DNA of 64,000 nt from Sphaerisporangium siamense (GTDB taxonomy: Bacteria; Actinomycetota; Actinomycetes; Streptosporangiales; Streptosporangiaceae): contig NZ_JACHND010000001.1 of NCBI RefSeq assembly GCF_014205275.1, positions 5,580,001-5,644,000 of the forward strand, given 5' to 3'. A model generated the notes under the pieces. That model saw nothing but the letters and a program-made list of their open reading frames with translations, was not told where the DNA came from and ran no database searches. The translations under genes were made by a program, and so were the position numbers. The first letter of the stretch is position 1, and each line of letters opens with the position of its first letter. Positions 8,122 through 50,495 of the stretch are shown piece after piece.

Positions 8122-8720
8122 GTCCGGGAACGATGAGTTCCCCCGCTAGTCCGTCCAATCGGGCGATCGCGCGGCGTACTGCCGAAGCTTTCGGCAGTAG
8201 GCCGCGCGTCCACCGGTACCATGACGATCAGGGGCGCGGCTTCGTCGACATAGCTGCGGCGCAGGATGTGCCTCATGCAGGGGTAACGTCTTATGCGACC
8301 CTCGGGCTGTCGGGCGCCCCCATGGAAATGCCTGACGGTGGAGAGTGTCCACTGAGAATCGAGCTCTTAGGGGCATGTAAAAGTAGCTTCGAGAGTTTCG
8401 CTAACGCCTTGGCCGCATCGGCCATAAGAATAATCTCAACGCGTAAGTTCTGCGCTCCGGGTGTTATATTTCCAGATATTCTGACAACACCTGGCGAGGC
8501 GGGCGACATGAAGAACTTCGTTTTCCTGTCGCCTTTCTTGTGGGATGATCCGTTTGAGGCGATGGAACTGGACGATAAAAAAGTGGCATGGCTCCTTGCC
8601 GTCCCGATCTCCGATGCTGAGCTTCAATACGCGTTGGATAGAGGCGTTCCGGAGTTGGAGAGTATATTGGAAGCGAATTCAATCGACATGTTTGACTTGA
8701 ATCGTTCTTCCGTGTTGTAG
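8118..8720 (+). CDS. SUFU-family immunity protein
   Basis: This 200-residue protein starts at a GTG overlapping the toxin's TGA (GTGA), or at ATG 8133. The C-terminal half has the suppressor-of-fused signature: a hydrophobic strand, then WLLAVPISDAEL, YALDRGVPELESIL and FDLNRSSVL. Bacterial SUFU-domain proteins are established candidate immunity proteins encoded directly downstream of polymorphic toxins, and the overlap supports that role: neutralising the GH-E nuclease in the producer's cytoplasm. There is no signal peptide, as expected. Base composition is near 50% GC in places, for example around 8341-8400, unlike the flanking genes but like the toxin tip, so the two probably arrived together. 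Direct binding to the nuclease is inferred. Confidence 0.85.
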   Translation: MSPGTMSSPASPSNRAIARRTAEAFGSRPRVHRYHDDQGRGFVDIAAAQDVPHAGVTSYATLGLSGAPMEMPDGGECPLRIELLGACKSSFESFANALAASAIRIISTRKFCAPGVIFPDILTTPGEAGDMKNFVFLSPFLWDDPFEAMELDDKKVAWLLAVPISDAELQYALDRGVPELESILEANSIDMFDLNRSSVL

Positions 8721-8743
8721 GCTTGGCGTTCTTTTATCACGAC

Positions 8744-8775
8744 AGGCCCCACCGAATAAACTTCCGGCGGGGCCT
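8744..8775. terminator. Hairpin after toxin-immunity operon
   Basis: AGGCCCC (8744-8750) pairs with GGGGCCT (8769-8775), with an extra inner CCG/CGG. There is no T-run, as is common in actinobacteria. It sits between the immunity gene and the convergent integrase remnant and could serve both. Confidence 0.55.
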
Positions 8776-8821
8776 CGGGGACTGTTTGACGGCTACAGCG
8801 GTCGTGATCGTTTTCTGACGG

Positions 8822-9510
8822 CTACGTTTCGGGAGGGTCGTCGAGGGCGTCGCCCATGCGTTCGATGGCGCCGCGTCGGAGGCGGAGCCGGACGTGGGCG
8901 TAGGTGTCGGCGGTGATGGAGCTGTGGGCGTGGCCGAGCAACTCCTCGATCACGACCAGGTCCACGCCCTGGTCCAGCGGAAAAGAGGCGCACGAGTGTC
9001 TCAGGTCGTGAAACCGGATCGTGCGCAGGCCCGCACGCTGTAAGAGCGCTTTGAAGTCGCGGCTGACGTCGGCCGGGTTGATCATGCCGCCGCGCCGGGT
9101 GGTGAACACGAGCCCGGTCTCAGGCCAGAGCGCTCCGATGGCCTGACGCTCGCCTTCATGACGTCTGCGATGTTCGGTCAGGACGTCGACACAGGAGCCG
9201 GGTAGAGCGATACGCCGTTCGGAGTTGATGGTCTTGGTCGGGGCGAGCACGAGCCCGACCCCGTCGGGGATGTACTGGAGGGTCTGGCGGATGGTCAAGG
9301 TACCGCCGTCAGGTCCACATCCGTCCAGCGCAGGCCGAGAAGTTCGCCGCGGCGCATCCCGGTGCGCAGAGCCGGCGTGACCAGGCGTACGGCCGGGAAC
9401 CCTCCGCAGCCTCCAGCAGGCGGCCGGCTTCGGCGGCGGTGAGAGGTTCGATGCGCTGACGGCGCCCGGCGCTGATCTGGACGTTCCAGGCGACACCGCG
9501 ACATGCACCC
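8822..9510 (-). pseudogene. Frameshifted tyrosine-recombinase (phage-type integrase) remnant
   Basis: Read on the minus strand, the catalytic domain is spread over three frames. An N-terminal piece (RIEPLTAAEAGRLLEAAEG) and the first-Arg motif (TGMRRGELLGLRWTDVDL) lie in two frames near 9300-9460. The rest (TLTIRQTL, FHDLRHSCAS, ELLGHAHSSI, ADTYAHV) lies in the frame ending at 8822. All catalytic motifs (R, HxxR, H, Y) are recognisable, but at least two frameshifts separate them and no convincing N-terminal core-binding domain remains. It is therefore a recently inactivated integrase beside the horizontally exchanged toxin tip, and probably marks an old integration event. No attachment site or tRNA was recognised. 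Confidence 0.8.
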
Positions 9511-9847
9511 CGACAATGAGGTGTCAAGCATCTCCCGGGACAGGACATACCGCGCTCCGCGGCCCGCCGCGCGTCGGGCGGTCGCCGGCCGCGCTGCGGT
9601 TCTCCGGCCGGTCGCGACCGGCGCCGCCCACGCGCACATTGCCGACCAGGCGCCGCAGCCAAGGAAGCACCCTGCCAACGCGGCAACAGGACCATGAAGG
9701 CGACGGGTCAGGCCACGCCGGACAAACTGACAATCCCGGGGCTCCGCCCCTGCACCCCGGCCTTCCTCGAAGATGAGGGGAGTGGCTGGTGTGGAAGGGC
9801 GGTCACCTCATCCAGATCAGGCCAGGCGAGCATACGGCTGAGGATTC
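9511..9847. other. Intergenic stretch, no gene recognised
   Basis: No frame on either strand has recognisable protein features. A short GC-rich self-complementary run lies near 9750-9765 (GGGGCTCCGCCCC). The stretch probably contains decayed sequence belonging to the integrase remnant. Confidence 0.4.
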
Positions 9848-9889
9848 AACCGGCCGATCGGCAGGCTATGGGCCTGAGATCGGCCGGTT
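9848..9889 (-). terminator. Strong hairpin after the SpoU methyltransferase gene
   Basis: AACCGGCCGATC (9848-9859) is perfectly complementary to GATCGGCCGGTT (9878-9889), with a second inner stem CAGGC/GCCTG. It lies about 30 bp beyond the stop of the minus-strand methyltransferase and fits a U-tract-less terminator. Confidence 0.7.
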
Positions 9890-9921
9890 CTCTCATGGTT
9901 CCTAAGGCGTGGTCGCCGGCG

Positions 9922-10494
9922 TCAGGGGCTCTCGTTGGCGACCGAGGGAGAAGGGGGGGATGACCACTCCTGGCGGCGGGCTTCGGCGAGGGTTATGGCG
10001 GCGGCGGTGGCGACGTTGAAGGAGCCGACGCGGCCGACCTGGGGGATGTAGAGGGTTTCGTCGGCGGCTTCCAGGACGGCGGGGGAGCAGCCGTGGTCCT
10101 CGCTGCCGAGGATCAGGCAGATGTCGCGGTTCAGCCGGGCCTCGTGCAGGGGGACGGCGTCGGCGGTCAGTTCGACGGCGAGGACGTGGTAGCCGTCCTC
10201 CTTGGCGGCGCGGACGGCGTCCAGGGCCGGGACCGCCTCGTGCCAGGTCACCAGACGGTCGGTGCCGAGCGCCGTCTTGCCGACCTTGGGGTTGGTGGGC
10301 GGGGTGGCGTTGCCCGCGAGCCAGATCTGGTCGGCGCCGAAGGCGGCGGCGGTGCGAAAGATCGAGCCGACGTTGAACGGGCCGGTCACCGATTCGAGGA
10401 TGAGCGACAGACGGTTCTCGGTGTTGCGCCGCCAGGTGCGGTTGAGCCGCTTGACGTCGGTCGGCCGGAGCTGCCTGCGGGTTCCAGGGGTCAT
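9922..10494 (-). CDS. TrmH/SpoU-family RNA 2'-O-methyltransferase
   Basis: This 190-residue SPOUT methyltransferase transfers a methyl group from S-adenosylmethionine to a ribose 2'-OH in tRNA or rRNA. The three SpoU motifs are present: NVGSIFRTAAAFGAD (~41-55), LILGSEDHGCSP (~128-139) and IPQVGRVGSFNVATAAAI (~150-167), which form the knotted cofactor site. The length fits the minimal tRNA-type TrmH without an extra N-terminal substrate-binding domain. A short basic N-terminus (RRQLRPTDVKRLNRTWRR) may contact RNA. The substrate nucleotide cannot be read from the sequence. It is probably a single-gene unit or follows the upstream methyltransferase gene across about 150 bp. Confidence 0.88.
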   Translation of the reverse strand: MTPGTRRQLRPTDVKRLNRTWRRNTENRLSLILESVTGPFNVGSIFRTAAAFGADQIWLAGNATPPTNPKVGKTALGTDRLVTWHEAVPALDAVRAAKEDGYHVLAVELTADAVPLHEARLNRDICLILGSEDHGCSPAVLEAADETLYIPQVGRVGSFNVATAAAITLAEARRQEWSSPPSPSVANESP

Positions 10495-39346: not shown

Positions 39347-40366
39347 TCAGTCGCCGGCGGCGGGGCGCCGCAGCAGGGGGTGGGTGCGCATCGCGACCTC
39401 CAGCTCGCCGGGGAGCTCGTCGCGGTAGCGGCCCAGGGTGGCCAGGTCGCGGTGGCCGAGGACACGGCGCACCGCGTCCATGTCCACCGCGTCGGCCAGC
39501 AGATGGGTCGCCGTGGTGTGCCGCAGGCCGTGCGGCGTCACCGAGCGCCGCTGGGCCGGCGGCACCCGCCGCTGGACGCGGTCGATCACCGCCTGGACGT
39601 CGCCGCGCGCCAGCCGTCTGCCCCGCCACGACAGCAGCAGGGCCTTCTCGGACGTGGCGGGCCGCCCGCCGGCCAGGTAGACCTCCAGCACCTCGGCCAC
39701 GTCGGCGGGCAGCGGCACGTCGCGCGTGCGCCCGCCCTTGCCGAAGATGCGCCAGTAGCGGACGCCGTCGTTGGTGTAGAAGTCCTCGACGTTGGCGCGG
39801 ACGAGCTCCGACACCCGCGGGCCGAGCGTGGAGAGCAGCAGGACGATCAGCGCGTCCCGGGCCTCCATGCGCTGGTCACGCCGCCCGCCCTCCGGCTCGG
39901 CGGACGTCAGCGACCGCGCCGCGCCCACCAGCCCCTGCGCCTGCTCCCGGGTGAGCGCCCGGCGCTCGGCGCGCAGCCCGCCGCGTTCCTTGGCCGTCAC
40001 CGTCACGGCCGTCATCGGGTTGACCTGCACCCACCCGGTCAGCGTCGCGTGCTTGAAGAACGCCGACACCGAACGCCGGAACCGCGACTGGGACGAGGCG
40101 CTCTGCGAGGCGGGGCCGTCCGGGGAGGAACGCCGCCCGTCCGGCTTGCGGGCGAAGGCCAGCAGCACCGCGTCGACGTCCTCACCGGTCAGATCGTCGA
40201 GCACCCGCCCCGGGCCGGCCAGGGCCGAGAACGTCCCCACGTCGCGCGCGTACACCTCGGCCGTCGCGGGCGACAGGGCGCCGGTGACGGTCTTGGCGAG
40301 GATCAGCTCGATATAACGGTCGGCGGACTCTTCGACGGTGATTCGCTTCAGCTGGGCGGGCCGCAT
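39347..40366 (-). CDS. Tyrosine recombinase/integrase (XerC/D-like)
   Basis: A 339-residue recombinase with an N-terminal SAM-like core-binding domain (~8-125, TVEESADRYIELIL, YARDVGTFSALAG). The catalytic domain shows Arg in LGPRVSELV, Lys in GKGGRTRDVPL, HGLRHTTATHLL, VLGHRDL and the Tyr nucleophile in LGRYRDE, so it appears active. Its size resembles Xer or integron-type recombinases, with no extra arm-binding domain. No phage, excisionase or recognised att site is adjacent. A second, unrelated-looking recombinase lies 1.5 kb away on the same strand. Confidence 0.9.
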   Translation of the reverse strand: MRPAQLKRITVEESADRYIELILAKTVTGALSPATAEVYARDVGTFSALAGPGRVLDDLTGEDVDAVLLAFARKPDGRRSSPDGPASQSASSQSRFRRSVSAFFKHATLTGWVQVNPMTAVTVTAKERGGLRAERRALTREQAQGLVGAARSLTSAEPEGGRRDQRMEARDALIVLLLSTLGPRVSELVRANVEDFYTNDGVRYWRIFGKGGRTRDVPLPADVAEVLEVYLAGGRPATSEKALLLSWRGRRLARGDVQAVIDRVQRRVPPAQRRSVTPHGLRHTTATHLLADAVDMDAVRRVLGHRDLATLGRYRDELPGELEVAMRTHPLLRRPAAGD

Positions 40367-40735: not shown

Positions 40736-40871
40736 GCGCGCGGCCGGACCGGGGTGCCGCGCGTCGTGGGCACGCGCGGGAAAACCCGGTGACAGGTGGG
40801 CTGGAGGCCGGGATCATGGCGCTGCGCGGGCCGGCCCGGGGGTGGTCTGCTGTAGCCGTTGGAGGAGTCTC

Positions 40872-41270
40872 ATGGCCACTTATACGACCGTTCCGGGGCT
40901 GCTGTCGCCTCCGGGGTACGCGCATGCCGCTGTGGTGGAGGCGGGGGAGCGGCTGGCGTTCATGGCGGGAGCCGTGCCGTTGGATGTCGAGGGCGGGCTC
41001 GTGGGGGCGGGGGAACCTGCCGCGCAGGCCCGGCAGGTGCTGGCCAACCTGGAGACCGCCCTGCGCGCGGTCGGCAGCGGTCTGCGGCACGTCGTGGCCA
41101 GCACGGTGTACGTCGCCACCACCCGGCAGGAGGACCTGTACGCCGTCTGGGAGGTCGTCCGGGCGTCCGAGCTGTCGGCGGGGCCGCACACCTCCACGCT
41201 GCTCGGCGTGTCGCTGCTCGGCTATCCCGGCCAGATCGTCGAGATCACCGCCACCGCCGTGGTCCCATGA
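40872..41270 (+). CDS. RidA/YjgF-family protein
   Basis: A 132-residue homotrimer-type fold: YTTVPGLLSPPGYAHAAVVE, AGAVPLDVEGGLVGAG, QARQVLANLETALRAVGSGL, HVVASTVYVATT and PGQIVEITATAV. RidA enzymes hydrolyse reactive enamines/imines from PLP enzymes. In the archetype an Arg near the C-terminal third binds the carboxylate; here the equivalent segment reads TSTLLGVSLLGYPG without an obvious Arg, so substrate or activity may differ. ATG 40872 follows GGAGGAG. It is the first of two genes sandwiched between two tyrosine recombinases. Confidence 0.88.
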   Translation: MATYTTVPGLLSPPGYAHAAVVEAGERLAFMAGAVPLDVEGGLVGAGEPAAQARQVLANLETALRAVGSGLRHVVASTVYVATTRQEDLYAVWEVVRASELSAGPHTSTLLGVSLLGYPGQIVEITATAVVP

Positions 41271-41340
41271 GCCGGGCATTTCCGGCGATCCCGGCGCGGC
41301 TCCCGCCCCACGAGGGCCCCGCCGCGTTTAGCATTCAGAC

Positions 41341-41823
41341 ATGATGGGGATCGGCTTGCCGGAGATCCTGGTCCTTCTGGTCGTCGGCGTCGTGGTCGTC
41401 GGGCTCTTCGCCGCCCTGACGCGCCGGGGCGGCAGGGCCACCGGACCGTCGTACGTGTCGGCCTGGCAGGACCACGGCGCACCTCCCTCTCCCGGCGACG
41501 TGCAGGGACAGGCGTACGCGCTGGTCGCGCAGGGCAAGAAGATCCAGGCGATCAAGCTGGTCCGCGAGCACACCGGCCTCGGCCTCGCGGACGCCAAGGC
41601 GTACGTCGACGCGCTGGCCGAGAGCCGTCCCGTGCCGCCCGCGGTCGCCCGCAAGGTCGCCCCGCCGCCCCAGGCCGCCGTCCCCGCGCCGCCCCGGGAT
41701 GATCTGGCCACCCGGGTGCGGGCTCTGAAGGCCGACGGCCGCGCCGAGCAGGCCGTGTACCTGGTGCGCGGCGAGACCGGGATGGGCCGGCAGGACGCCG
41801 AGGCGTTCGTCGCGCAGCTCTGA
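41341..41823 (+). CDS. Membrane-anchored tandem L7/L12 C-terminal-domain protein
   Basis: A 160-residue protein. Residues ~6-25 form one membrane helix (PEILVLLVVGVVVVGLFAAL). Two modules follow that resemble the ribosomal L7/L12 C-terminal domain: ALVAQGKKIQAIKLVREHTG then LGLADAKAYVDAL (~60-92), and RVRALKADGRAEQAVYLVRG then ETGMGRQDAEAFVAQL (~122-160). A Pro/Ala linker separates them. In L7/L12 this domain recruits translational GTPases through the IKxVRxxTGLxLxxAK helices; the first copy keeps that pattern and the second is diverged. It may tether a partner at the membrane; the function is unknown. Confidence 0.8.
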   Translation: MMGIGLPEILVLLVVGVVVVGLFAALTRRGGRATGPSYVSAWQDHGAPPSPGDVQGQAYALVAQGKKIQAIKLVREHTGLGLADAKAYVDALAESRPVPPAVARKVAPPPQAAVPAPPRDDLATRVRALKADGRAEQAVYLVRGETGMGRQDAEAFVAQL

Positions 41824-41869
41824 CCCGAGTCCGGCGCCGCTCCGCGGCTTATGCCGTCCCCGTCCGGTG

Positions 41870-42913
41870 CTACGGAGCCGCGGGCCGGTCCACTCCGGGT
41901 GTGCCGGGGTCGGAGGCGTCCGGGCGCAGTCCCTCCAGCACCGCGTAGGCGGGGTTGCCGCGCGCCGCGTGGCGCACCTCGCGCGCCGTCGAGGCCACGT
42001 ACGCCTGCCCGGTGACGATCGAGGAGTGGCCGAGCAGCTCCATGAGCTCGTGCGCCGAGGCCCCCCGCTCGGCCAGGCGCGTGGCGAACTCGTGCCGCAG
42101 CGCGTGCACCAGCGTCCCCTTCTGCACGCGGTCGTGGATCCCGGCGTACCGGTAGCACTGGCGCACCAGGTACTGCAGCCCGCCGCGCCGCAGCGGCTCG
42201 TTGCGCAGGTCCACCAGCAGCGGCGCCGACCGGGGCAGCGTCGTGAGCCCGAACCGGGTGAGGCGGCCGGCCAGGTAGACGTCGATCAGGCGCTCGATCG
42301 GCGGCTCGATGGGCAGCGAGCGCGCCTTGCCGCCCTTGCCGACGACCTGGACGCGCCGGTCGCCCTCCGTGCCGCCGATCGACCCGACCGTCAGGCCGAG
42401 CAGTTCGGCGGAGCGCATGCCGGTGACCAGCGCCAGCGCCAGCACGACCAGGTCGCGCTCCACCCAGGGGTCGCGCGCCTCGCGCGCGCCGGCGGCGATG
42501 CGCTCCAGCAGCGTCGCCGACGCCGTCCCGTCGCCGAGCAGCGGCTTGGGCGCCTTGGCGGGCTGCTTGGGGCGGGGCACGGCCGCCATGGGGTTGCCCT
42601 CCAGCATGCCCTCGGCCACGCAGAAGGTGAGGAACTGGTTCCAGGCGCTCCAGGCGCGGTTGACGCTGGCCGCCGAGCGCGGCTCGGCGAAGTCGGCGAA
42701 CGCCGCACGCACCAGGCGTCCGCCGAGCGAACGGACCTCCAGGTCCTCCACCGGGACGCCCGCCACGCCGGCCGCCGCCCGCGCCACCAGGCGCAGGTCG
42801 CGCTCGTACCCGGCCAACGTGTGCGGCGAGAGCTTCTTGGCGCGCAGCGACGACAGGAACTCGGCGACGGCCTCGGGCACACGCATCAGCACCAAGGGGA
42901 TGCCTTCACCCAC
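41870..42913 (-). CDS. Second tyrosine recombinase/integrase
   Basis: A 347-residue protein starting at GTG 42913, chosen for a GGAGG four bases upstream; ATG 42886 is an alternative. The N-terminal core-binding domain (VAEFLSSLRAKKLSPHTLAG, YERDLRLVARAA) precedes the catalytic motifs: Arg in TGMRSAELLGL, Lys in GKGGKARSLPI, VHALRHEFATRL, LLGHSSI and Tyr in GQAYVAST. All six positions look intact. It has no accessory mobile genes and is on the same strand as the other recombinase, the pair enclosing RidA and the L7/L12-like gene. Confidence 0.9.
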   Translation of the reverse strand: MGEGIPLVLMRVPEAVAEFLSSLRAKKLSPHTLAGYERDLRLVARAAAGVAGVPVEDLEVRSLGGRLVRAAFADFAEPRSAASVNRAWSAWNQFLTFCVAEGMLEGNPMAAVPRPKQPAKAPKPLLGDGTASATLLERIAAGAREARDPWVERDLVVLALALVTGMRSAELLGLTVGSIGGTEGDRRVQVVGKGGKARSLPIEPPIERLIDVYLAGRLTRFGLTTLPRSAPLLVDLRNEPLRRGGLQYLVRQCYRYAGIHDRVQKGTLVHALRHEFATRLAERGASAHELMELLGHSSIVTGQAYVASTAREVRHAARGNPAYAVLEGLRPDASDPGTPGVDRPAAP

Positions 42914-42997
42914 GACGCCTCCGTACCCCGGACATGCCACAAGTGTTGTGATTATGCATGAAATCCGGACCGTGCGGCGTGCCGACACGCCGTACGG

Positions 42998-44335
42998 TCA
43001 CGCGCCGGAGGCTCCCGCGGCGGGCGGCCGGGCGGGCGTGCCGTCCAGGGACCGCAGCCGCAGAACGAACCGGGCGCCGCGCGGGGAGTCCTCGACCCGC
43101 AGCGTCCCGCCGTGCGCCACCGCGATCTCCCTGGAGATCGCCAAGCCCAGCCCGGTCCCGGCAGGGTCGCGGCGCCGGGCGTCGTCCAGCCGGACGAAAC
43201 GGTCGAACACCCGCTCGCGGTCCGCGGGCGCGATGCCGTCCCCGTCGTCCTCGACGGTGAGGACCGCCTGCCCGTCCACGGCCTCGACGCGGACGACGAC
43301 CTCGCCCTCGGCGTGCCGCTGGGCGTTGACGACCAGGTTCTCCACCACGCGCGCGAGCTGGATGCGCGACCCGCTCACCGGGACCGCCGACGGCGCCCGC
43401 ACGCGGACCGGGACCGCGTTCACCCGTGCCCCCGTCGCCTCGGTCGCGAGCGCGGCCAGGTCCACCCGCTCGGGCGGCACGGGGTCGGCCGCGCGCAGGC
43501 GGGCCAGCTCCAGCAGGTCGGCGATGATCGCCTCCAGCCGGTCGGTGGTCGCCAGCGCGCCGCGGATCGCCTCGCGCGGGTCGACGTCATCGGGGTAGGC
43601 CAGCGCCTCCTCCAGGCGGGCGCGCAGCCCCGCGAGCGGGGACCGCAGCTCGTGGGAGGCGTCGGAGGCGAACCTGCGCTGCTGCTTGACCGCCGTCTCC
43701 AGACGGGCGAGCGTCTCGTTGGCCGTGCGCGCCAGCATGGTGATCTCGTCGCGGCCCGGCGGGAGCGGGACGCGCCGGCTCAGGTCGGTGCCGGTGATCT
43801 CCGCCATCCGCGCCGAGATCGTCTGCACCGGACGCAGGGTGCGGCCGAGCATGGTCCAGCTCGTCCACCCGACCAGCCCCACGATGGGCGCGGCGCCCAC
43901 GGCGATGCCGATGTCCAGCTCGTTGGTCGCGAGGATGGCCGGCTCCGTCATCCCCGCGTAGACGACCGGGGAGCCGGGCGTGGGGGTGGCGCGGATCGCC
44001 ATGAGGATGACACACCCCTGGCTCGTGCCGCACTCGGTGATGTTCTGGAACCGGTCGTCGGGCGGCGGGCGCACCCGCGACAGCGGCAGCTGCTCCGAGG
44101 CCGCCCTGCTGGCGTTGGTCACGCGGCCGCGCGCGTCCACGACCTGGACCAGGTCCACCGGGCGCCGCGCCGGGATCGTGCGGGGCACCGTGCCGGCGCG
44201 GACGGCCGCGCTCCACTGCCCGGCCACGCGCTTGTTGTCCTCGAACGCGTCGGCCTCGGTCTTGTACCGGATCGCGGCGGCGAGGCTGGCCCCCACCGTG
44301 GCCAGGAACACGACCGACAGCGCCATCGCCAGCAA
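42998..44335 (-). CDS. Orphan sensor histidine kinase
   Basis: A 445-residue kinase read from TTG 44335; ATG 44326 is an alternative, and an upstream in-frame stop limits further extension. Membrane helix 1 (ALSVVFLATVGASLAAAI), a ~120-residue sensor loop with two Cys, helix 2, HAMP (~170-225), HisKA with phospho-His in ASDASHELRSPLAGLRARLE, and HATPase with N box ENLVVNAQRHA, G1 VEDDGDGI and G2 GTGLGLAI. Kinases of this type normally follow a response-regulator gene, but none lies upstream (44336-44820) or downstream. The very short leader before helix 1 suggests a lost 5' region. Confidence 0.88.
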   Translation of the reverse strand: MLAMALSVVFLATVGASLAAAIRYKTEADAFEDNKRVAGQWSAAVRAGTVPRTIPARRPVDLVQVVDARGRVTNASRAASEQLPLSRVRPPPDDRFQNITECGTSQGCVILMAIRATPTPGSPVVYAGMTEPAILATNELDIGIAVGAAPIVGLVGWTSWTMLGRTLRPVQTISARMAEITGTDLSRRVPLPPGRDEITMLARTANETLARLETAVKQQRRFASDASHELRSPLAGLRARLEEALAYPDDVDPREAIRGALATTDRLEAIIADLLELARLRAADPVPPERVDLAALATEATGARVNAVPVRVRAPSAVPVSGSRIQLARVVENLVVNAQRHAEGEVVVRVEAVDGQAVLTVEDDGDGIAPADRERVFDRFVRLDDARRRDPAGTGLGLAISREIAVAHGGTLRVEDSPRGARFVLRLRSLDGTPARPPAAGASGA

Positions 44336-44820
44336 GGTGTAGCGGGCCCGGATGGAGGCCGGGGAAAGCGCTTTCCACCTCGTACCGTAGGGCCGGCGAA
44401 GGAACCGGGGGACGACGTTCAGGGGACGCTCCGATCAGCACGGGGACGCATGGCGGTCCGGAGGGCGGCGGGCGTGGGACGCGGGGCCATGCGGCCGGGG
44501 ACGGTATCGCGGCGACGTCCCGGCTCGGGGAAGACGTCCGCCACCACGGCCCGCGCGGGGCCGGCGTTGTGGCCGGGGGAGCGAGGCCTGTACGCCTGAA
44601 AAGTACCTCCGACCTGCTATAACGCTAGCATCAGACGTAAATGGCTTCGGCAAAAGACTTGGCCAAGTCTCGCCGCGCCCCATGCGTCCGGCCGGGGCGC
44701 GGGCGTGCCGGGTACGCGATGGACGGCGAACGAGCACCCCGATCAGATGCCGAAGGTGAGGGTCGACCACGGCCATGTGGACGAGGAGCGGGCACCGCGA
44801 CCGCTCCGAAGGGGCGCGGT
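44336..44820. other. Intergenic stretch between kinase and unknown cassette
   Basis: No recognisable protein is encoded on either strand. Frames reaching in from both sides lose protein character here. An AT-richer patch at 44590-44640 (ACCTGCTATAACGCTAGCATCAG, quoted in part) may hold a promoter for the downstream cassette. There is no response-regulator gene or remnant. Confidence 0.5.
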
Positions 44821-45732
44821 GTGCTCGCCGCGTACGACGAGATCCTGCGGACCATCAAGAGCGACCCGATAATGATCATCGGCGGCTACGAATTCGAGGG
44901 TTTCGACTGGAAGACGACCGATCCGCTCACGGTTCAGTTGACGGTGCTCGCCAACAGGATCGACCGCGCCATCCGGGTCGCCATCAGCAAACGGTATCCC
45001 GACATGCTGTACCCGTCCGAGCCGAGCACGCTGGTGAAGGTGTGGGCCGAGGTTGAGGACGGCGCGTTCGACATCTTCCACCTGATGGATGAGACGGCCA
45101 TCGGGGCGGTCCGGAAGGTTCTGCCCTTCGACGTCGGCCCGCTGGAGGGACACAACTTCAAGAAGTGGCTGAAGAAGCTGTTGGGGGGCGACTTCTCGGT
45201 GCTCTACGACCCGCGCGCGTCCGTCGGCACCGACCCGAAGCCAGAGCGCCCGGAGCGCGGATTCGTGCTGCGGGTGCAGGAGATACTCCGCGCCGTTAGG
45301 AACAGGGGTAAACCGGCGTACGCCCTGACCATGCAGTCCCAGACGACGGCGAGCGCACGGAAGCTGGCCTCCGCGGTGCACATGGCGAATCCCAAGATCC
45401 TGGCGACCGGGAAGGGAATGATACAGACGGCGGTCTTCGGGCATGTCGAAAAGGTCGTCATCCTGATGTCGGAGAATCCAGGGATGACCGCTCGTGACCC
45501 CCGGATCCGGCAGACTCTGCGGGCAATGGCCGAGGCGGTGGAAGTGGCGGCGGGAACCACAGAGGCGCGAACGAACAAGGATCTCGGGAAGGCCTTGGCG
45601 TCGAGCCACGAGGTCGCACAGGACATCATCGCCGCGCTGACGTCGAAGAAGCTCAGGCAGACGTGGGCGGAACTTCGCCAGGTGCTGCGGGAGATCGAGG
45701 GCGGGCAAGGTCCCGGACAGGACGCAGGATAG
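44821..45732 (+). CDS. Unknown protein, first gene of a two-gene cassette
   Basis: A 303-residue soluble protein from GTG 44821 (GAAGGGG upstream); longer in-frame starts back to 44641 give non-protein-like Arg/Gly-rich sequence. Distinct segments: IKSDPIMIIGGYEFEGFDW, ANRIDRAIRVAISKRYPDML, AVRKVLPFDVGPLEGHNFKK and a long helical C-terminal half (NPGMTARDPRIRQTLRAMAE, SSHEVAQDIIAALTSKKLRQ). There is no signal peptide, membrane helix or catalytic motif I can name. Its TAG is part of the AGGAG ribosome site of the next gene, 11 bp away, so the two are co-expressed. Confidence 0.7.
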   Translation: MLAAYDEILRTIKSDPIMIIGGYEFEGFDWKTTDPLTVQLTVLANRIDRAIRVAISKRYPDMLYPSEPSTLVKVWAEVEDGAFDIFHLMDETAIGAVRKVLPFDVGPLEGHNFKKWLKKLLGGDFSVLYDPRASVGTDPKPERPERGFVLRVQEILRAVRNRGKPAYALTMQSQTTASARKLASAVHMANPKILATGKGMIQTAVFGHVEKVVILMSENPGMTARDPRIRQTLRAMAEAVEVAAGTTEARTNKDLGKALASSHEVAQDIIAALTSKKLRQTWAELRQVLREIEGGQGPGQDAG

Positions 45733-45743
45733 GAGTTCACCAG

Positions 45744-46385
45744 GTGCCCGACGAGCTGGAACAGTTGAGGACCGAGGCGTCGAGCCGCGGGTACGGGCCG
45801 ATGGCGCGCCTGGCGCGAGCGCTGTACGAGGCCGGCCTGCCCCCGGAGCAGGTCCTGCGCGAGTGCTACGGAGCCGACCTGCCCCGGGAGGTCTTCTCGA
45901 TCGCGGCGGCCGACCCGTACACACTGGGCCTGCTGGCGAAGTGGGCCAACCAACCTTGGCAACTGGCCGTACCACTGGACCGAGGTGGCCCGGCGTCTCA
46001 AGCCGACACCTACGAGCCGAAGGAGCGGCGGGTCCACGTCCTGGACCCCGACCTGCTTCCCCTGGTGTTCTTGATCCGCCCGGGCATCGACATCGAGGAC
46101 GACGGCCTGGTGCTCTGCTACCGCCTGACCGAACTGGCAGCAGGCAGATCAACGATCTTCGGCGTCCGCGAAGACGCCGACAACCCCTCAGAGGCGACCC
46201 GACTCGGCGACTCCCTCCTGGCCGTCCTGCACAGGCACCACACGAAATACCTGCACGAACTTGAAGAGGAGTCGGCGAACACGGAGGACAAGGGCGAGTA
46301 CGACTTCGTGGACCCGGAAGAGCTGAGAGAGGTGAGAGCCCTGGTAGACCGCATAGAGACCTTCCAGCACGAAGCACAGACCTGA
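45744..46385 (+). CDS. Unknown acidic protein, second gene of the cassette
   Basis: A 213-residue acidic protein (GTG 45744, AGGAG 8 bases upstream). It begins with a helical region (DELEQLRTEASSRGYGPMAR, LARALYEAGLPPEQVL). A mixed region follows (LPREVFSIAAADPYTLGLLA, LDPDLLPLVFLIRPGID, EDDGLVLCYRLTELAAG), then an acidic helical tail (HELEEESANTEDKGEYDFVD). The LPxE...LG pattern is loosely reminiscent of SUKH/SMI1-type immunity proteins, but this is too weak to assign. It is coupled to the preceding unknown gene. Confidence 0.7.
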   Translation: MPDELEQLRTEASSRGYGPMARLARALYEAGLPPEQVLRECYGADLPREVFSIAAADPYTLGLLAKWANQPWQLAVPLDRGGPASQADTYEPKERRVHVLDPDLLPLVFLIRPGIDIEDDGLVLCYRLTELAAGRSTIFGVREDADNPSEATRLGDSLLAVLHRHHTKYLHELEEESANTEDKGEYDFVDPEELREVRALVDRIETFQHEAQT

Positions 46386-46571
46386 TCGGTTCCCGTCGCG
46401 GCTCTCGGCGGCGCCTTCGCTTCGAAGGGTTCTTGCGAGCTAGAGAGCGCCATGCTGGGTGCGGCGTCAGGGCCGGTCGTCGCGCGGCACGACCTCGGCG
46501 AGCGAGCGGCGTGCCGCGGCCGGGGTGATCGCGTAGCATGGCGCCCCGGTCCGTCGAGACTGGAGGTCGCC

Positions 46572-47051
46572 ATGGTGAACGACATCGACCTGCGGCACCT
46601 GCGCAGGTGTGTCGAGCTCGCCGCCGAGGCGTTGGCAGAGGGGGACGAGCCGTTCGGGTCGGTCCTGGTCGCGGGGGACGGCGCGGTGCTCGCCGAGGAC
46701 CACAACCGGGTGGCCGGGGGCGATCGCACCCGGCACCCGGAGTTCGCGCTGGCGCGGTGGGCGGCGGCCAACCTGACCCCCGAGCAACGCGCGGCGGCGA
46801 CCGTCTACACCTCGGGGGAGCACTGCCCCATGTGCGCGGCGGCGCACGGCTGGGTCGGGCTCGGCCGCATCGTCTACGCCAGCTCGTCCCGGCAGCTCGC
46901 GGCGTGGCTGGCCGAGCTCGGCGTCCCGGCCCCGCCGGTGCGCACGCTGCCGATCGGCGAGGTGGTGCCGGGCGCGGTCACCGACGGGCCCGTCCCCGAG
47001 TTGGCCGAGCGAGTACGTGAGCTGCACCGCCGCTTCCATCGCGCCGGCTGA
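46572..47051 (+). CDS. Nucleoside/cytidine deaminase-superfamily enzyme
   Basis: A 159-residue zinc deaminase from ATG 46572 with GGAGG upstream. The zinc site is H-P-E in RTRHPEFALARWAAANL (the usual HAE has Pro) and GEHCPMCAAAHGWVGLGRI (PCxxC). DEPFGSVLVAGDGAVLAEDHN is the typical substrate-loop strand. The layout is that of guanine deaminase/tRNA adenosine deaminase-like nucleoside deaminases; the substrate is undetermined. The gene stands alone and is convergent with the SDR gene. Confidence 0.88.
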   Translation: MVNDIDLRHLRRCVELAAEALAEGDEPFGSVLVAGDGAVLAEDHNRVAGGDRTRHPEFALARWAAANLTPEQRAAATVYTSGEHCPMCAAAHGWVGLGRIVYASSSRQLAAWLAELGVPAPPVRTLPIGEVVPGAVTDGPVPELAERVRELHRRFHRAG

Positions 47052-47072
47052 TCGCCGCTTCGGCCGGGAGGG

Positions 47073-47774
47073 TTAGACGGGCTGGCCGATCGGCCGTATG
47101 ACCACGGTGTTGACGTCCACGCCGCGCGGCTGGGTGATCGCCCACACGATGGACTCGGCGAGCTGGGCGGCCGTCAGCAGTGAACCCTCGGGCGGCCCGC
47201 CCAGGCCGTCCCAGAAGGGGGTCTCCACGCGCCCCGGGGCGATCAGCGTGACGCCCACGCCGTAGGCGGTGACCATGCGGCGGGTGTTCTCGGCGAGACC
47301 GGTCACCGCCCACTTGGTGGCCCCGTAGATGTTGCCGGGGGTGTTGACGAAGCCCGCGACGCTGCCGACGAGGACGATGCGCCCGCCGGTCTCCTTCAGC
47401 GCGGGCAGGGCGGCCCTGATGAGCAGCGCGGGGCCGAGGACGTTGGTGAGGATCATCTCGCGCCAGCGGGCGGGGTCGCCGTTGTCGAGGGTGTCGTGGC
47501 TGGCGAAGCCGGCGTTGGCGACGGCGGTGTCCAGCCGCCCGAACTCTTTCACGGTGGACTCGACGGCCGCGGTCACGGACTCGTCGTCGGAGGCGTCTCC
47601 GGGGAGGGTCAGCAGGCCGGGCGGGTCGCCGAGCCCGGCGGCGAACCGGGTGAGGCGGTCGCGGTCACGGCCGGTGACGGCGACCCGGTGCCCCCGGTCG
47701 AGCAGGAGCCGGGCCGCGGCCGCGCCGATGCCGCTGGAACCACCGGTGATCAACGTGACAGGGGAGTCGGTCAT
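47073..47774 (-). CDS. SDR-family NAD(P)-dependent oxidoreductase
   Basis: A 233-residue short-chain dehydrogenase: TGGSSGIGAAAARLLLDRGH, VANAGFAS (NNAG variant), catalytic Ser in VLVGSVAGF and YGATKWAVTGLAE; NIYGATK marks the Tyr/Lys pair. It resembles SDR family 7-type oxidoreductases often induced by electrophiles. ATG 47774 lies only 7 bases after the -10 of a MerR-type promoter, so the mRNA is probably leaderless, which favours this start over GTG 47783. Confidence 0.9.
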   Translation of the reverse strand: MTDSPVTLITGGSSGIGAAAARLLLDRGHRVAVTGRDRDRLTRFAAGLGDPPGLLTLPGDASDDESVTAAVESTVKEFGRLDTAVANAGFASHDTLDNGDPARWREMILTNVLGPALLIRAALPALKETGGRIVLVGSVAGFVNTPGNIYGATKWAVTGLAENTRRMVTAYGVGVTLIAPGRVETPFWDGLGGPPEGSLLTAAQLAESIVWAITQPRGVDVNTVVIRPIGQPV

Positions 47775-47781
47775 GCGCCGC

Positions 47782-47812
47782 ACCCTAGGACGTGGAGCGC
47801 GCTCCAGGTCAA
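47782..47812 (-). promoter_or_regulatory. MerR-type promoter of the SDR gene (leaderless)
   Basis: On the minus strand, TTGACC (47812-47807) and TAGGGT (47787-47782) are 19 bp apart with the perfect palindrome TGGAGCGCGCTCCA in between. The transcript would begin near the SDR ATG. The architecture matches 20736-20766. Confidence 0.75.
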
Positions 47813-47921
47813 GCGATCACCCGGGACGCGCGCACGGTCCGGCATGTCGCCATCCGGCCTGCGAAGCGCGCGGCCGGGGTCCGCGGCGGGTCGCGTGCCG
47901 GGCCCGCCGCGGACCCGCCGC

Positions 47922-48125
47922 TCAGCCGCCGGTCACCGAGAAGATGTCGACGCGCGTGTTGTTCAGGACGTCCTTGACGACGACGTCCCTGACGTTCACG
48001 TCCACGTCCACGGGGGCGGGACCGTCGGCGCGGACGGCGGACGCGGACGCCGTCGCGGCGGTGACCGCGAGGACGGCGCCGCCGGCCAGGGCGGCGACGG
48101 CGAGCAACGAGGCGATCTTGCGCAT
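47922..48125 (-). CDS. Small secreted protein
   Basis: A 67-residue protein with a clear signal peptide (MRKIASLLAVAALAGGAVLA, cleavage likely after ATASA) and a ~35-residue mature part rich in Val and Asp (VDVDVNVRDVVVKDVLNNTR), which looks like short alternating beta strands. AGGAG precedes ATG 48125. There are no cysteines and no recognised family. An inverted repeat (48190-48205) lies about 65 bp upstream. It may be a surface or developmental peptide; this is unproven. Confidence 0.65.
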   Translation of the reverse strand: MRKIASLLAVAALAGGAVLAVTAATASASAVRADGPAPVDVDVNVRDVVVKDVLNNTRVDIFSVTGG

Positions 48126-48189
48126 GACTGCTCCTAGGGGGAGGAAACGATCGGCGGCCGGGACGCCGCCGCCTCCGAGCATACTGATG

Positions 48190-48205
48190 GTAACGTGATG
48201 GTTAC
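48190..48205 (-). promoter_or_regulatory. Inverted repeat GTAAC-N6-GTTAC
   Basis: GTAAC (48190-48194) and GTTAC (48201-48205) lie upstream of the small secreted protein. It is a plausible operator for an unidentified regulator. Confidence 0.45.
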
Positions 48206-48301
48206 TCTATGCCAGTGAAGTCGCTCACGATCCGGTGCGTCCCGTGCCCCTCCGGGGTGAAGGAATGTCCACCGGTACGGGCGGCCGGGTTCCGCCGGGT
48301 C

Positions 48302-49309
48302 CTAGGCGAGCATGGCCAGGACCTTCTCTTCCTTGTCCGGGGAGAGGCCGTGCCGGGGGCGGTCGGGGCGGGCGGATGGCTCGCCTTCCGAGCGGAGCCA
48401 GTTCCAGGTGTCGGTGACGGTGTCCTCGACGGAACGGCAGGCCAGGCCGGCGGCGAGCGCGGCCGAGACGTCGCAGTCGTGCATGCCGCCGTACTCGGCG
48501 TCCTCCGGCAGCCAGATCGGCAGCTCCACCCACGGTGCGAGCCCGGCCCGCTCGATCACCTCGGCCGGGGTCCACACCAGCTCGGCATCCGACCCGGTCA
48601 CCCGGCGCGCCGCCTCCAGCAGCCCGCCCATCGTGGCGATCCCCGGCGGGCCGACGATGTTGAAGGCGCCGCCCAGGCCGCGCGCGGCCCCGTCCAGCAT
48701 CCACGCGGCGAGGTCGCGGGCGTCGACGTACTGGAGGGGACGTCCCGGACGGCCGGGGGCCAGCACGCGTCCGCCGCGTTCGAGCCTGCGCAGCCACCAC
48801 GGCAGCCGGCCGATGTCCTCGTACGGCCCGAGCACCAGCCCGGCGCGGGCCAGCAGCGCCCGGTCGCCGAACGCCGCGAGGACGGCCAGTTCGCCGCCCC
48901 GCTTGGCCGCCGCGTAGTCCTGATCGTCCTCGTCGCCGGGGTCGGCGTCGACCACCGGGGCGTCCTCGCCGGCCCCGATGGGCATCGGCCACCGGTACAC
49001 CGACCGGCTGGAGACGTACCCGTAGTGGCCCGCCCGCCCGGCGAGCAGCCCGCAGGCGTCCCGTACCACGCGGGGCGCCCCGCTCCAGGTGTCGAGGACC
49101 GCGTCCCACTCCCGGCGCCCCAGCGCGCCGCGCAGCGCCGCCGGGTCGGTCCTGTCGGCGGTGATCGTCTCGACGCCCGCGGGGGCCGTGCCGGTCACCC
49201 CGCGGTTCAGCATGGTGACCTCGTCGCCGCGCGCCAGGGCCCGCTCGATGATGGCTCGCCCCACGAAACGGGTTCCGCCAAGGACGAGAATGCTCATTCC
49301 GGACGTCAT
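48302..49309 (-). CDS. NAD-dependent epimerase/dehydratase-family protein
   Basis: A 335-residue extended-SDR protein. The cofactor motif is VLGGTRFVGRAIIE near the N-terminus; YGYVSSRSVYRWP and DYAAAKRGGELAVL replace the canonical YxxxK (YAAAK). LPWWLRRLERGGRVLAPGRP and FNIVGPPGIATMGGLL are typical of isoflavone-reductase/RNA-binding-like members of the family. The reaction is not predictable. The start is ATG 49309 or 49297. It is divergent from the LacI regulator across 184 bp. Confidence 0.87.
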   Translation of the reverse strand: MTSGMSILVLGGTRFVGRAIIERALARGDEVTMLNRGVTGTAPAGVETITADRTDPAALRGALGRREWDAVLDTWSGAPRVVRDACGLLAGRAGHYGYVSSRSVYRWPMPIGAGEDAPVVDADPGDEDDQDYAAAKRGGELAVLAAFGDRALLARAGLVLGPYEDIGRLPWWLRRLERGGRVLAPGRPGRPLQYVDARDLAAWMLDGAARGLGGAFNIVGPPGIATMGGLLEAARRVTGSDAELVWTPAEVIERAGLAPWVELPIWLPEDAEYGGMHDCDVSAALAAGLACRSVEDTVTDTWNWLRSEGEPSARPDRPRHGLSPDKEEKVLAMLA

Positions 49310-49493
49310 ACCGGCACTCTGGCCGAGCCCGCCCGCTCAGGCCAGCCGGATTCACCGAGGGCGTAGTGGCAGGTCCCGCCGTGGCCGTGGGAGCCTCGAC
49401 GGCGGCGGGGCCGGGACGGCAGGATCGGCGGGGACGGCGTCGTCCGGCGGGGCGCGGGTCCCGGCCGCCGTGGCGTGAGACCTGGGAGGGGCT

Positions 49494-50495
49494 GTGACGG
49501 GGCGGGCGACGATCTATGACGTGGCCACCGAGGCGGGGGTCAGCATCTCGACGGTGTCGCTCGCGCTCAACGCGCCGGGCCGGGTCAGCGCGGCCACCCG
49601 CCGCAAGGTGCTCGCCGCCGTGGACGCCCTGGGCTTCGTCCCCAAGCCCGACGCCGTCGCGCGCGCCCGGCGCGGCGCGGGCCGCGTCGGGGTCATCGCC
49701 CCGCACACCTCCTACGCCACCGTGGCCCGCCGTGTGAACGGCGTCCTCGCCGCCGCGGCGGCGCGCCCGGTCGAGGTCGTGCTCTACGACCAGCGCTCGG
49801 CGGCGGAGAGCACGTCCCCGCTGCTGGCGGCGCTGCCGGTGACCGGGCGGCTGGACGGCCTGCTCGTGGTGAGCCTGCCGCTGGACGACGGCGTGGCCGC
49901 GCGCCTCACCGGCCTCGGCCTTGCCACGGTGCTGGTGGACGTGCGCCACCCGGGGTTCGACTCCGTCGGCGCGGACGACGAGGCGGGCGGCCGGCTGGTC
50001 GCCGATCATCTGACCGGTCGCGGGCACCGGCGCCTGGGGTTCCTCGGCGAGGCGCAGCGGACCGGCGCGTACGTGTCCCCGTCCGGGCGCAGGCTCGCGG
50101 GCTTCCGCGCCGGGCTCGCCGACGCCGGCCACGACCTCCCCGAGGGCGCGGTGCGGTTCGCGCGGCACGGCGTCGCCCCCGCCGCCGAGGCCGCCGCCGC
50201 CCTGCTGTCGGGGCCCGGGCGTCCCACGGCGGTCTTCGCCGCGGACGACGTCCTCGCGGCGGGCGTGCTCAAGGCGGCGCGCGCCCTCGGACTGCGGGTG
50301 CCGGAGGATGTGGCCGTGGCCGGGTTCGACGACGGCGAGCTGGCCGAGGCGCTGGAGCTGACCACCGTGCGCCAGCCCTTGGAGGAGTCCGGCCGCGCGG
50401 CGATGGAACGCCTGCTGCAACGCCTGGAGTCTCCCGCGGCCCCGGCCCGCGAGACCACGCTCGCCCTGCGCCTGGTCGAACGCGCCACCACCTGA
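49494..50495 (+). CDS. LacI-family transcriptional regulator
   Basis: A 333-residue regulator: TIYDVATEAGVSISTVSLAL, NAPGRVSAATRRKVLAAVDA, LGFVPKPDAVARARR form the HTH and hinge, and the remainder is the periplasmic-binding-like sensor (VGVIAPHTSYATVARRVNGV, FAADDVLAAGVLKAARALGL, VAGFDDGELAEALELTTVRQ). GTG 49494 follows GGGAGGGG. Downstream, across a gap with nested palindromes, lies an SDR gene on the same strand that it probably controls. Confidence 0.93.
   Translation: MTGRATIYDVATEAGVSISTVSLALNAPGRVSAATRRKVLAAVDALGFVPKPDAVARARRGAGRVGVIAPHTSYATVARRVNGVLAAAAARPVEVVLYDQRSAAESTSPLLAALPVTGRLDGLLVVSLPLDDGVAARLTGLGLATVLVDVRHPGFDSVGADDEAGGRLVADHLTGRGHRRLGFLGEAQRTGAYVSPSGRRLAGFRAGLADAGHDLPEGAVRFARHGVAPAAEAAAALLSGPGRPTAVFAADDVLAAGVLKAARALGLRVPEDVAVAGFDDGELAEALELTTVRQPLEESGRAAMERLLQRLESPAAPARETTLALRLVERATT

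What the first reader, a model, noticed from the sequence alone, without database searches (positions are those of the whole stretch)
44821..46385. Uncharacterised two-gene cassette
Two co-translated soluble proteins of unknown family (303 and 213 aa; the first ends within the second's ribosome site) follow a 485-bp empty region. The large-plus-acidic pairing resembles toxin-antitoxin, effector-immunity or defence pairs but matches no family I recognise.
Basis: inference. Interest (0 to 1): 0.55.

Follow-up and report, generated by a model that had tools for sequence, protein, structure and literature searches.

The report
Stray toxin tail with immunity gene
The two unknown genes look like the clipped-off tail of a large bacterial weapon protein together with the gene for its antidote, a leftover or acquired self-protection module in an actinomycete; neither the weapon tip nor the antidote matched a described family in the libraries searched.

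Summary
The two ORFs are real and as described. Gene 1 (w1) is not a family of its own: it is the last ~310 residues of a ~500-residue toxin-like tip that ends carrier proteins of about 1,600 residues; one intact copy lies 1.29 Mb away in the same genome. In 7 of 7 distinct loci with an intact tip the next gene is a homologue of gene 2 (w2). The same carrier bears other tips elsewhere, so this is a polymorphic toxin–immunity system. Two remote relatives of the tip sit on other effector chassis, one with the eCIS core domain. w1 lacks the first third of the tip, with a DxD motif present in 9 of 9 intact relatives. w2's predicted fold (pLDDT 82) is like SMI1/KNR4 (SUKH) proteins and, best by one aligner, the HPF1 N-terminal domain. 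w2 relatives occur in 16 of 337 family genomes, 13 of them with no toxin found: orphan immunity genes. In the nearest relative the flanks adjoin without the ~1,825-bp block. Most likely: a toxin tail, probably inactive, beside a probably working immunity gene. Effector–immunity origin is supported; a self-contained toxin–antitoxin or phage-defence cassette is not. New families of a known kind.

The parts
44700..46524 (.). block present here, absent from the syntenic place of the sister genome G172 (1,825 bp; edges uncertain by tens of bp, the right one especially)
   Evidence: window 40766-44699 and 46525-50000 align at 91-93% to L074:2926-6858 and 6878-10359; GC 0.63-0.71 in 300-bp windows against mostly 0.72-0.80 on either side
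44689..44697 (+). left copy of a 9-bp direct repeat at the edge of the block
   Evidence: identical 9-mer at 46517-46525, one copy at the junction in L074:6848-6856; the 9-mer occurs 26 times in the window, and 30 of 2000 random position pairs share a run this long
   Evidence: blastn to L011 starts at 44802; protein alignment
44821..45732 (+). w1: C-terminal part of a polymorphic-toxin tip domain (303 aa from GTG 44821); lacks the N-terminal ~180 residues of the domain with the DxD motif
   Evidence: 32-38% identity to the C-termini of the G000, G172 and G101 carriers, 48% to Amycolatopsis eburnea L011; keeps 39 of 41 columns invariant in the other seven tips
45731..45735 (+). AGGAG, likely ribosome-binding site of w2, overlapping the stop of w1
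   Evidence: sequence
45744..46385 (+). w2: putative immunity protein, 213 aa, SUKH/HPF1-N-domain-like predicted fold
   Evidence: 42-49% identity to the gene behind six of seven intact tips, 29-30% to the seventh; model pLDDT 82.4, pTM 0.80; VIA-align Z 10.0 HPF1, 6.5 SMI1/KNR4
46517..46525 (+). right copy of the 9-bp direct repeat

Best explanation
w1+w2 is a stray module of a polymorphic toxin system. In intact loci a carrier of about 1,600 residues ends in a ~500-residue toxin-like tip and is followed by the immunity gene; here only the last ~310 residues of the tip and the whole immunity gene are present, in a ~1,825-bp block without the carrier. Shown: homology, gene order, carrier with exchangeable tips, truncation, absence of the block in the sister genome, w2 relatives without the toxin. 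Inferred: the tip is delivered by a contractile injection system (an eCIS-core protein carries a relative of it); the tip is an enzyme using its DxD motif, perhaps a sugar-nucleotide transferase that modifies a target in competing bacteria; w2 binds the tip and blocks it, protecting the producer and, as an orphan, any recipient. At this locus w1 is then probably an inactive remnant and w2 the selected part: it guards against the intact toxin of the other copy in the same genome and of neighbours.
For: Intact paralogue in the same genome and copies in G172 and G101; five loci in genome contigs, one of them the G101 locus again; w2 homologue directly downstream in 7 of 7 distinct loci, overlapping the toxin stop by 4 nt in 5 of 7. 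The carrier of L006 is 57-64% identical to four others (L040-L043) that have other C-termini and other downstream genes, one tip with a phosphotransferase match. Remote relatives of the tip in an eCIS_core protein (E 1.5e-25) and behind a Peptidase_M91 domain. DxD present in 9 of 9; w1 lacks it, and no other carrier part lies in the window. w2 relatives in 16 of 337 family genomes; in 13 regions from 12 of the 13 genomes without toxin match no tip was found; tandem w2 domains with ankyrin matches in three. SUKH/HPF1-like fold.
Against: Toxicity and neutralisation are untested. No CIS sheath or tube gene lies near any of 14 carrier or relative loci, and none of 11 distinct carriers has an eCIS_core match, so CIS delivery is indirect. 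CIS genes in 3 of 3 toxin genomes had no toxin-free comparison group. The glycosyltransferase idea rests on a motif: no Pfam glycosyltransferase hit, no convincing PDB sequence hit, and the tip model was useless (pLDDT 43). w1 shows no decay (39 of 41 invariant columns kept, intact frame, coding GC pattern), which a dead fragment need not show, and about half of the part shared with the remote relatives is still in w1.
Confidence: 0.75

Rival explanations
1. w1 is itself active: the C-terminal ~300 residues are the working toxin (or a working subdomain), and the pair is a minimal, intracellular toxin-antitoxin-like unit.
For: Clean open frame, coding GC pattern, 39 of 41 invariant columns kept; a GTG with a purine-rich stretch before it at 44821; immunity gene next to it; about half of the part shared with the remote relative L053 (profile 13-102 and 134-332 of 503) lies inside w1 (186-493).
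Against: The other half, with the DxD present in 9 of 9 intact sequences, is missing. 7 of 7 other loci have the whole tip on a carrier. No promoter-like site was found (the sigma-70 scan is of little use in this GC-rich genome).
Confidence: 0.12
2. The module is an inert relic: both w1 and w2 are passengers of a recent rearrangement, neither is expressed or useful.
For: No recognisable promoter or terminator; narrow occurrence; absent from the sister genome.
Against: w2 is intact with coding GC pattern and keeps the family pattern; w2 relatives recur in 13 other family genomes without toxin match, which suggests selection for the immunity gene, though 5 of the 13 regions fetched hold only partial matches.
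Confidence: 0.15
3. On origin only: the block is ancestral and was deleted in G172 between the 9-bp repeats, rather than inserted here.
For: A single repeat copy at the junction is also what a repeat-mediated deletion leaves.
Against: G108, the only other fetched genome with matched flank on both sides, is also too short to hold the block (921 against 2708 bp); five more fetched genomes matched on one side only and say nothing. GC of the block differs from its surroundings.
Confidence: 0.2

Closest known systems
Polymorphic toxin systems with orphan and poly-immunity (PMC3482391, passages read)
   Same: Carrier with exchangeable C-terminal tips, immunity gene downstream, immunity domains fused in tandem and to ankyrin repeats
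   Different: No curated match for w1 or w2 in Pfam, PADLOC, NCBIfam or PHROGs, nor for the whole tip in Pfam, PADLOC or NCBIfam (PHROGs not tried with the whole tip)
Sle1-type CIS effectors of Actinobacteria (PMC13277306, abstract and passages read)
   Same: Large helical protein without the DUF4157/eCIS core domain, variable C-terminus; one from Micromonospora eburnea with a downstream immunity gene
   Different: Sle1-type genes lie in CIS clusters beside a DUF4157 gene; the carriers here do not lie beside CIS sheath or tube genes. No sequence comparison with Sle1 was made
Tox-Glycosyltransferase tips (YxDxD motif; table row in PMC3482391, passage read)
   Same: DxD motif; Actinobacteria and PVC-type export are listed for it
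   Different: No Pfam glycosyltransferase match; fold of our tip not established
SUKH immunity proteins, including orphan SUKH genes of Bacteroidales rAID systems (PMC12247911, abstract and passages read)
   Same: SMI1/KNR4-like predicted fold; copies without toxin commoner than toxin-linked ones
   Different: No sequence match to SUKH models; best structural match is HPF1; no array here
HPF1 (eukaryotic cofactor of PARP1/2), N-terminal domain
   Same: First seven VIA-align rows, Z 8.5-10.0 over 143-152 residues
   Different: 10-16% identity, no sequence-profile hit; HPF1 is not among the 50 Foldseek rows shown, none of which reaches E 0.001

Membership tests
Polymorphic toxin system | One carrier with different C-terminal tips | tested here: met
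   L006 carrier vs L040-L043: 57-64% identity over 766-924 residues, then ends not matched
Polymorphic toxin system | Immunity gene immediately downstream of the tip | tested here: met
   7 of 7 distinct loci with an intact tip carry a w2 homologue
Polymorphic toxin system | The copy in the window has carrier and complete tip | tested here: not met
   Only residues 1287-1626 of the G000 carrier match the window: the window holds a fragment of the system, not a complete member
Polymorphic toxin system | Tip is toxic and the downstream protein neutralises it | not testable with these tools
   needs expression experiments
CIS/eCIS effector | eCIS core domain (DUF4157, PF13699) in the protein | tested here: not met
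   No match in 11 of 11 distinct carriers (L010 is cut by its contig end); present only in the remote relative L053
CIS/eCIS effector | Gene in or beside a CIS cluster | tested here: not met
   Six CIS sheath/tube proteins of G000 find nothing in 14 carrier or relative loci, with a working positive control; the loci span only 9-21 kb
Glycosyltransferase toxin (GT-A fold) | DxD motif | tested here: met
   9 of 9 intact sequences; absent from w1
Glycosyltransferase toxin (GT-A fold) | GT-A fold or profile match | tested here: inconclusive
   No Pfam match; model too poor to compare
SUKH (SMI1/KNR4) immunity superfamily | SMI1/KNR4 fold | tested here: inconclusive
   3d5p Z 6.5 over 108 residues, YobK 2prv Z 5.5, levels that unrelated folds also reach; 3d5p is Foldseek row 4 at E 1.3, probability 0.69; no Pfam match better than E 0.19 for 6 of 6 members
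Phage-defence or ordinary toxin-antitoxin system | Match to a known defence family | tested here: not met
   PADLOC: 0 families for w1 and w2; the carriers give only weak ZorA/mad3 matches (best E 7e-4) in their helical middle

The most novel reading that the evidence does not exclude
w2 founds an immunity family whose fold is that of the N-terminal domain of HPF1, the protein that steers human PARP1/2. If the likeness is true homology, HPF1 would descend from, or share an ancestor with, bacterial immunity proteins that cap enzyme active sites, and the w1-type tip would be a new class of nucleotide-sugar-using toxin that such a protein caps.
Probability: 0.12. Interest if true: 0.7.

Novelty: new member of a known kind. 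Interest (0 to 1): 0.4.

Why it matters
It gives an identity to a toxin-tip family and an immunity family that the libraries searched do not describe, links the tip to contractile-injection effectors through an eCIS-core relative, and suggests in actinomycetes the kind of orphan immunity genes described for gut Bacteroidales. If w2 protects, such bacteria carry resistance to toxins they do not make themselves, and the HPF1-like fold would make the origin of a PARP cofactor testable.

Tried and rejected
Rejected or leading nowhere. (1) Known family for w1/w2: only matches below the curated cut-offs, best E 0.023. (2) Weak PDB sequence matches of the tip, mostly ribosomal protein uL3 (E 0.0017, a 74-residue stretch): not among the matches of the deeper profile. 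(3) Tip model at pLDDT 43 was not used for a fold search. (4) Relatives of the tip in viral contigs, plasmids and phages: none. (5) The two tyrosine recombinases at 39-43 kb as movers of the cassette: the nearer one (41870-42988) lies in flank also present in the cassette-less sister genome; of the farther one only 40001-40366 was compared, and it is shared too. (6) tRNA-linked insertion: no tRNA gene in the window, though 2 of the 9 orphan w2 regions scanned have w2 downstream of a tRNA gene. (7) eCIS_core in the own genome: none found, but the control rang nowhere, so no weight is put on it. (8) Foldseek for w2: no match at E<=0.001; the HPF1 likeness rests on VIA-align alone. The tool warns that mostly helical models can reach Z 13-14 by common arrangement, and w2 is largely helical with some strands, so Z 10 is suggestive only. 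(9) Search of print for HPF1 with SUKH, Knr4 or immunity protein. One search counted word beginnings (71 papers, listing seen only; no paper holds both whole words); one search found one off-topic paper; the single paper (PMC10789625, passages) does not link them. (10) PMC11297309 (passages) gave no relative of the tip. (11) Script errors of mine: four of six CIS queries were read from the wrong strand, redone; the L009 codon-position row is out of frame and unused.

The five carriers not scanned before were then scanned.

Limits: the genome search scores only a few candidates per genome, so absences are not proof. That the later-numbered w2 genomes were in the toxin scans is inferred from the handle numbers; none of the 13 is among the matches. 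G299 and the second place of G221 were not fetched, and a tip elsewhere in those genomes would be missed. The start of the tip domain is my estimate from the alignments.

Full report
What is there. Their codon-position GC is that of real genes. The first is basic and the second acidic (pI 9.1 and 4.6). Neither reaches a curated cut-off in Pfam or NCBIfam, PADLOC gives nothing, and PHROGs only an E of 0.094.

What gene 1 is. The own genome holds a second copy at C1:4336637-4337587, 36% identical, at the end of an open frame of 1,626 residues. In the family, 3 of 297 genomes match; the three copies other than the window's are the C-termini of frames of 1,596-1,669 residues. The order scan gave 3 of 345. 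A scan of genome contigs with w1 alone found nothing; with the full tip it gave five loci: Streptomyces roseolilacinus, a Micromonosporaceae MAG, Amycolatopsis eburnea, another MAG, and Streptosporangium violaceochromogenes. The last has the same 1,669-residue frame and contig length as G101 and is counted once. That makes seven distinct loci with an intact tip; their frames are 1,593-1,669 residues, one 2,162, and one 1,423 cut by its contig end. The Amycolatopsis tip is closest, 48% to w1. DNA homology to it starts at 44802 and runs through both genes to 46247.

What is missing. The tip is about 500 residues (my estimate of its start). w1 starts near position 180 of the 509-position profile. 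The lost part holds the motif DxD, invariant in 9 of 9 aligned intact sequences; in the window the in-frame codons at that place do not encode it. Otherwise w1 is well kept: 39 of 41 columns invariant in the other seven tips are unchanged, against 41 of 43-49 for each of those seven when tested against the remaining six.

What gene 2 is. A w2 homologue follows the tip in 7 of 7 distinct loci. Identity to w2 is 42-49% in six and about 30% in the seventh, L012. In 5 of 7 the start overlaps the toxin stop by 4 nt; L011 has no gap and L012 20 nt. Here the gap is 11 nt.

The carrier. The conserved carrier region was found in 5 of 200 family genomes, at 8 places, one a short fragment. Four of these places (L040-L043) have other C-termini and other downstream sequence: one tip matches phosphotransferases (PF01636, E 3.8e-5), and one carrier stops early and is followed by a separate kinase-like ORF (weak match, E 0.0036). 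This is the signature of a polymorphic toxin. The class scan (3 of 394 genomes, own included) added two remote relatives of the tip: L053, with an eCIS core domain (E 1.5e-25), and L052, behind a Peptidase_M91 domain. A phylum scan found 2 of 386, the own genome and G381. So the tip family is shared between effector chassis, one of them marked as a contractile-injection effector. The carriers themselves have no eCIS core match, 0 of 11. All three toxin genomes have sheath and tube genes, but none near the carriers: six CIS proteins find nothing in 14 loci, with a working control. I had no group of toxin-free genomes for comparison, so the co-occurrence counts for little.

Orphan immunity. A w2 profile matched 16 of 337 family genomes. 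Three of these have the toxin. From the other 13 I fetched 13 regions of 12 genomes and found no tip in any (G299 was left out); 8 of the 13 regions hold a match over nearly the whole profile and 5 only a partial one. In three (L110, L111, L113) two w2 domains stand in tandem in frames of 958-1,024 residues with ankyrin matches, under Pfam's cut-off in L111. In 2 of the 9 regions scanned for tRNA genes w2 follows one (L107, L117). In the genomes G000, G172, G101 and G099 each w2 copy found, 4 of 4, has the toxin or its tail beside it. Orphan and duplicated immunity domains are known from warfare between bacteria (PMC3482391 passages; PMC12247911 abstract and passages).

The locus. The sister genome G172 has the same flanks at 91-93% identity, but window bases 44700-46524 are missing there, 19 bp standing in their place. 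A 9-bp repeat lies at both edges here and at the junction there; it is a common word in this GC-rich DNA, and 30 of 2000 random pairs of positions do as well. G108 has only 921 bp between matched flanks against 2708 here. Five other genomes of the genus that I fetched matched on one side only. The block has lower GC than its surroundings. Insertion here is the simpler reading; deletion elsewhere is not excluded.

Fold. The tip model failed (pLDDT 43, six sequences), so its enzyme class is not shown. The idea of a sugar-nucleotide transferase rests on the DxD motif, on its setting after a hydrophobic stretch (my reading), and on a table row listing glycosyltransferase tips with YxDxD in Actinobacteria and PVC export (PMC3482391 passage). 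The w2 model is good (pLDDT 82, pTM 0.80). Foldseek gave nothing significant; an SMI1/KNR4 protein (3d5p) is its row 4, E 1.3, probability 0.69, and HPF1 is not among the 50 rows shown. VIA-align put HPF1 in its first seven rows, Z 8.5-10.0 over 143-152 residues, then a gap to Z 6.6, with SMI1/KNR4 proteins at Z 6.5 (3d5p) and 5.5 (2prv). By the tool's own yardstick Z 10 is above the usual best of 7-8 for models without clear relatives, but mostly helical models can reach 13-14, and w2 is largely helical; so this is suggestive, not proof. That HPF1 and SUKH proteins share a fold I could neither confirm nor find in print.

Mechanism. Best reading: the intact protein is injected, its tip acts on a target cell, and w2 binds and blocks the tip in kin. 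In the window the tip has lost its front part with the DxD, so w1 is probably harmless and w2 is the useful gene, protecting against the intact toxin of the own genome and of neighbours. Against this: w1 shows no decay, w2's function is untested, and delivery by a CIS is inferred. Actinobacterial CIS effectors with variable ends and, in one case, a downstream protein that relieves the toxicity have been shown by experiment (PMC13277306, abstract and passages), and an eCIS toxin-immunity pair too (PMC8213781 passages), so the proposed mechanism has precedent.

Verdict. It is a fragment of a known kind of system, with tip and immunity families that the libraries used here do not describe.

Noticed in passing
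window 39347-40366 (-) and 41870-42988 (-): Two tyrosine recombinase genes about 4.3 and 1.7 kb before the cassette; the nearer one lies in flank shared with the cassette-less sister genome.
   Followed up: partly
window 41341-41823 (+): 160-aa ORF with a ribosomal L7/L12 C-terminal-like match (E 3e-9) and a hydrophobic start, beside a recombinase gene.
   Followed up: no
L110, L111, L113 (G332, G338, G337): Frames of 958-1,024 residues with ankyrin matches and two tandem w2-like immunity domains: possible poly-immunity proteins.
   Followed up: partly
L041:1605-4784 and 4832-5611: A shortened carrier (1,059 aa) followed by a separate 259-aa ORF with a weak kinase match, perhaps another stray tip.
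   Followed up: no
L052:2257-5223 (G696): 988-aa frame joining a Peptidase_M91-like domain (also a sub-threshold XopG/HopH match) to a remote relative of the tip.
   Followed up: no
G000:C1:2221896-2223286 and C1:3702542-3705767: Two separate CIS sheath/tube gene sets in the window's genome, the second with two sheath and two tube copies.
   Followed up: no
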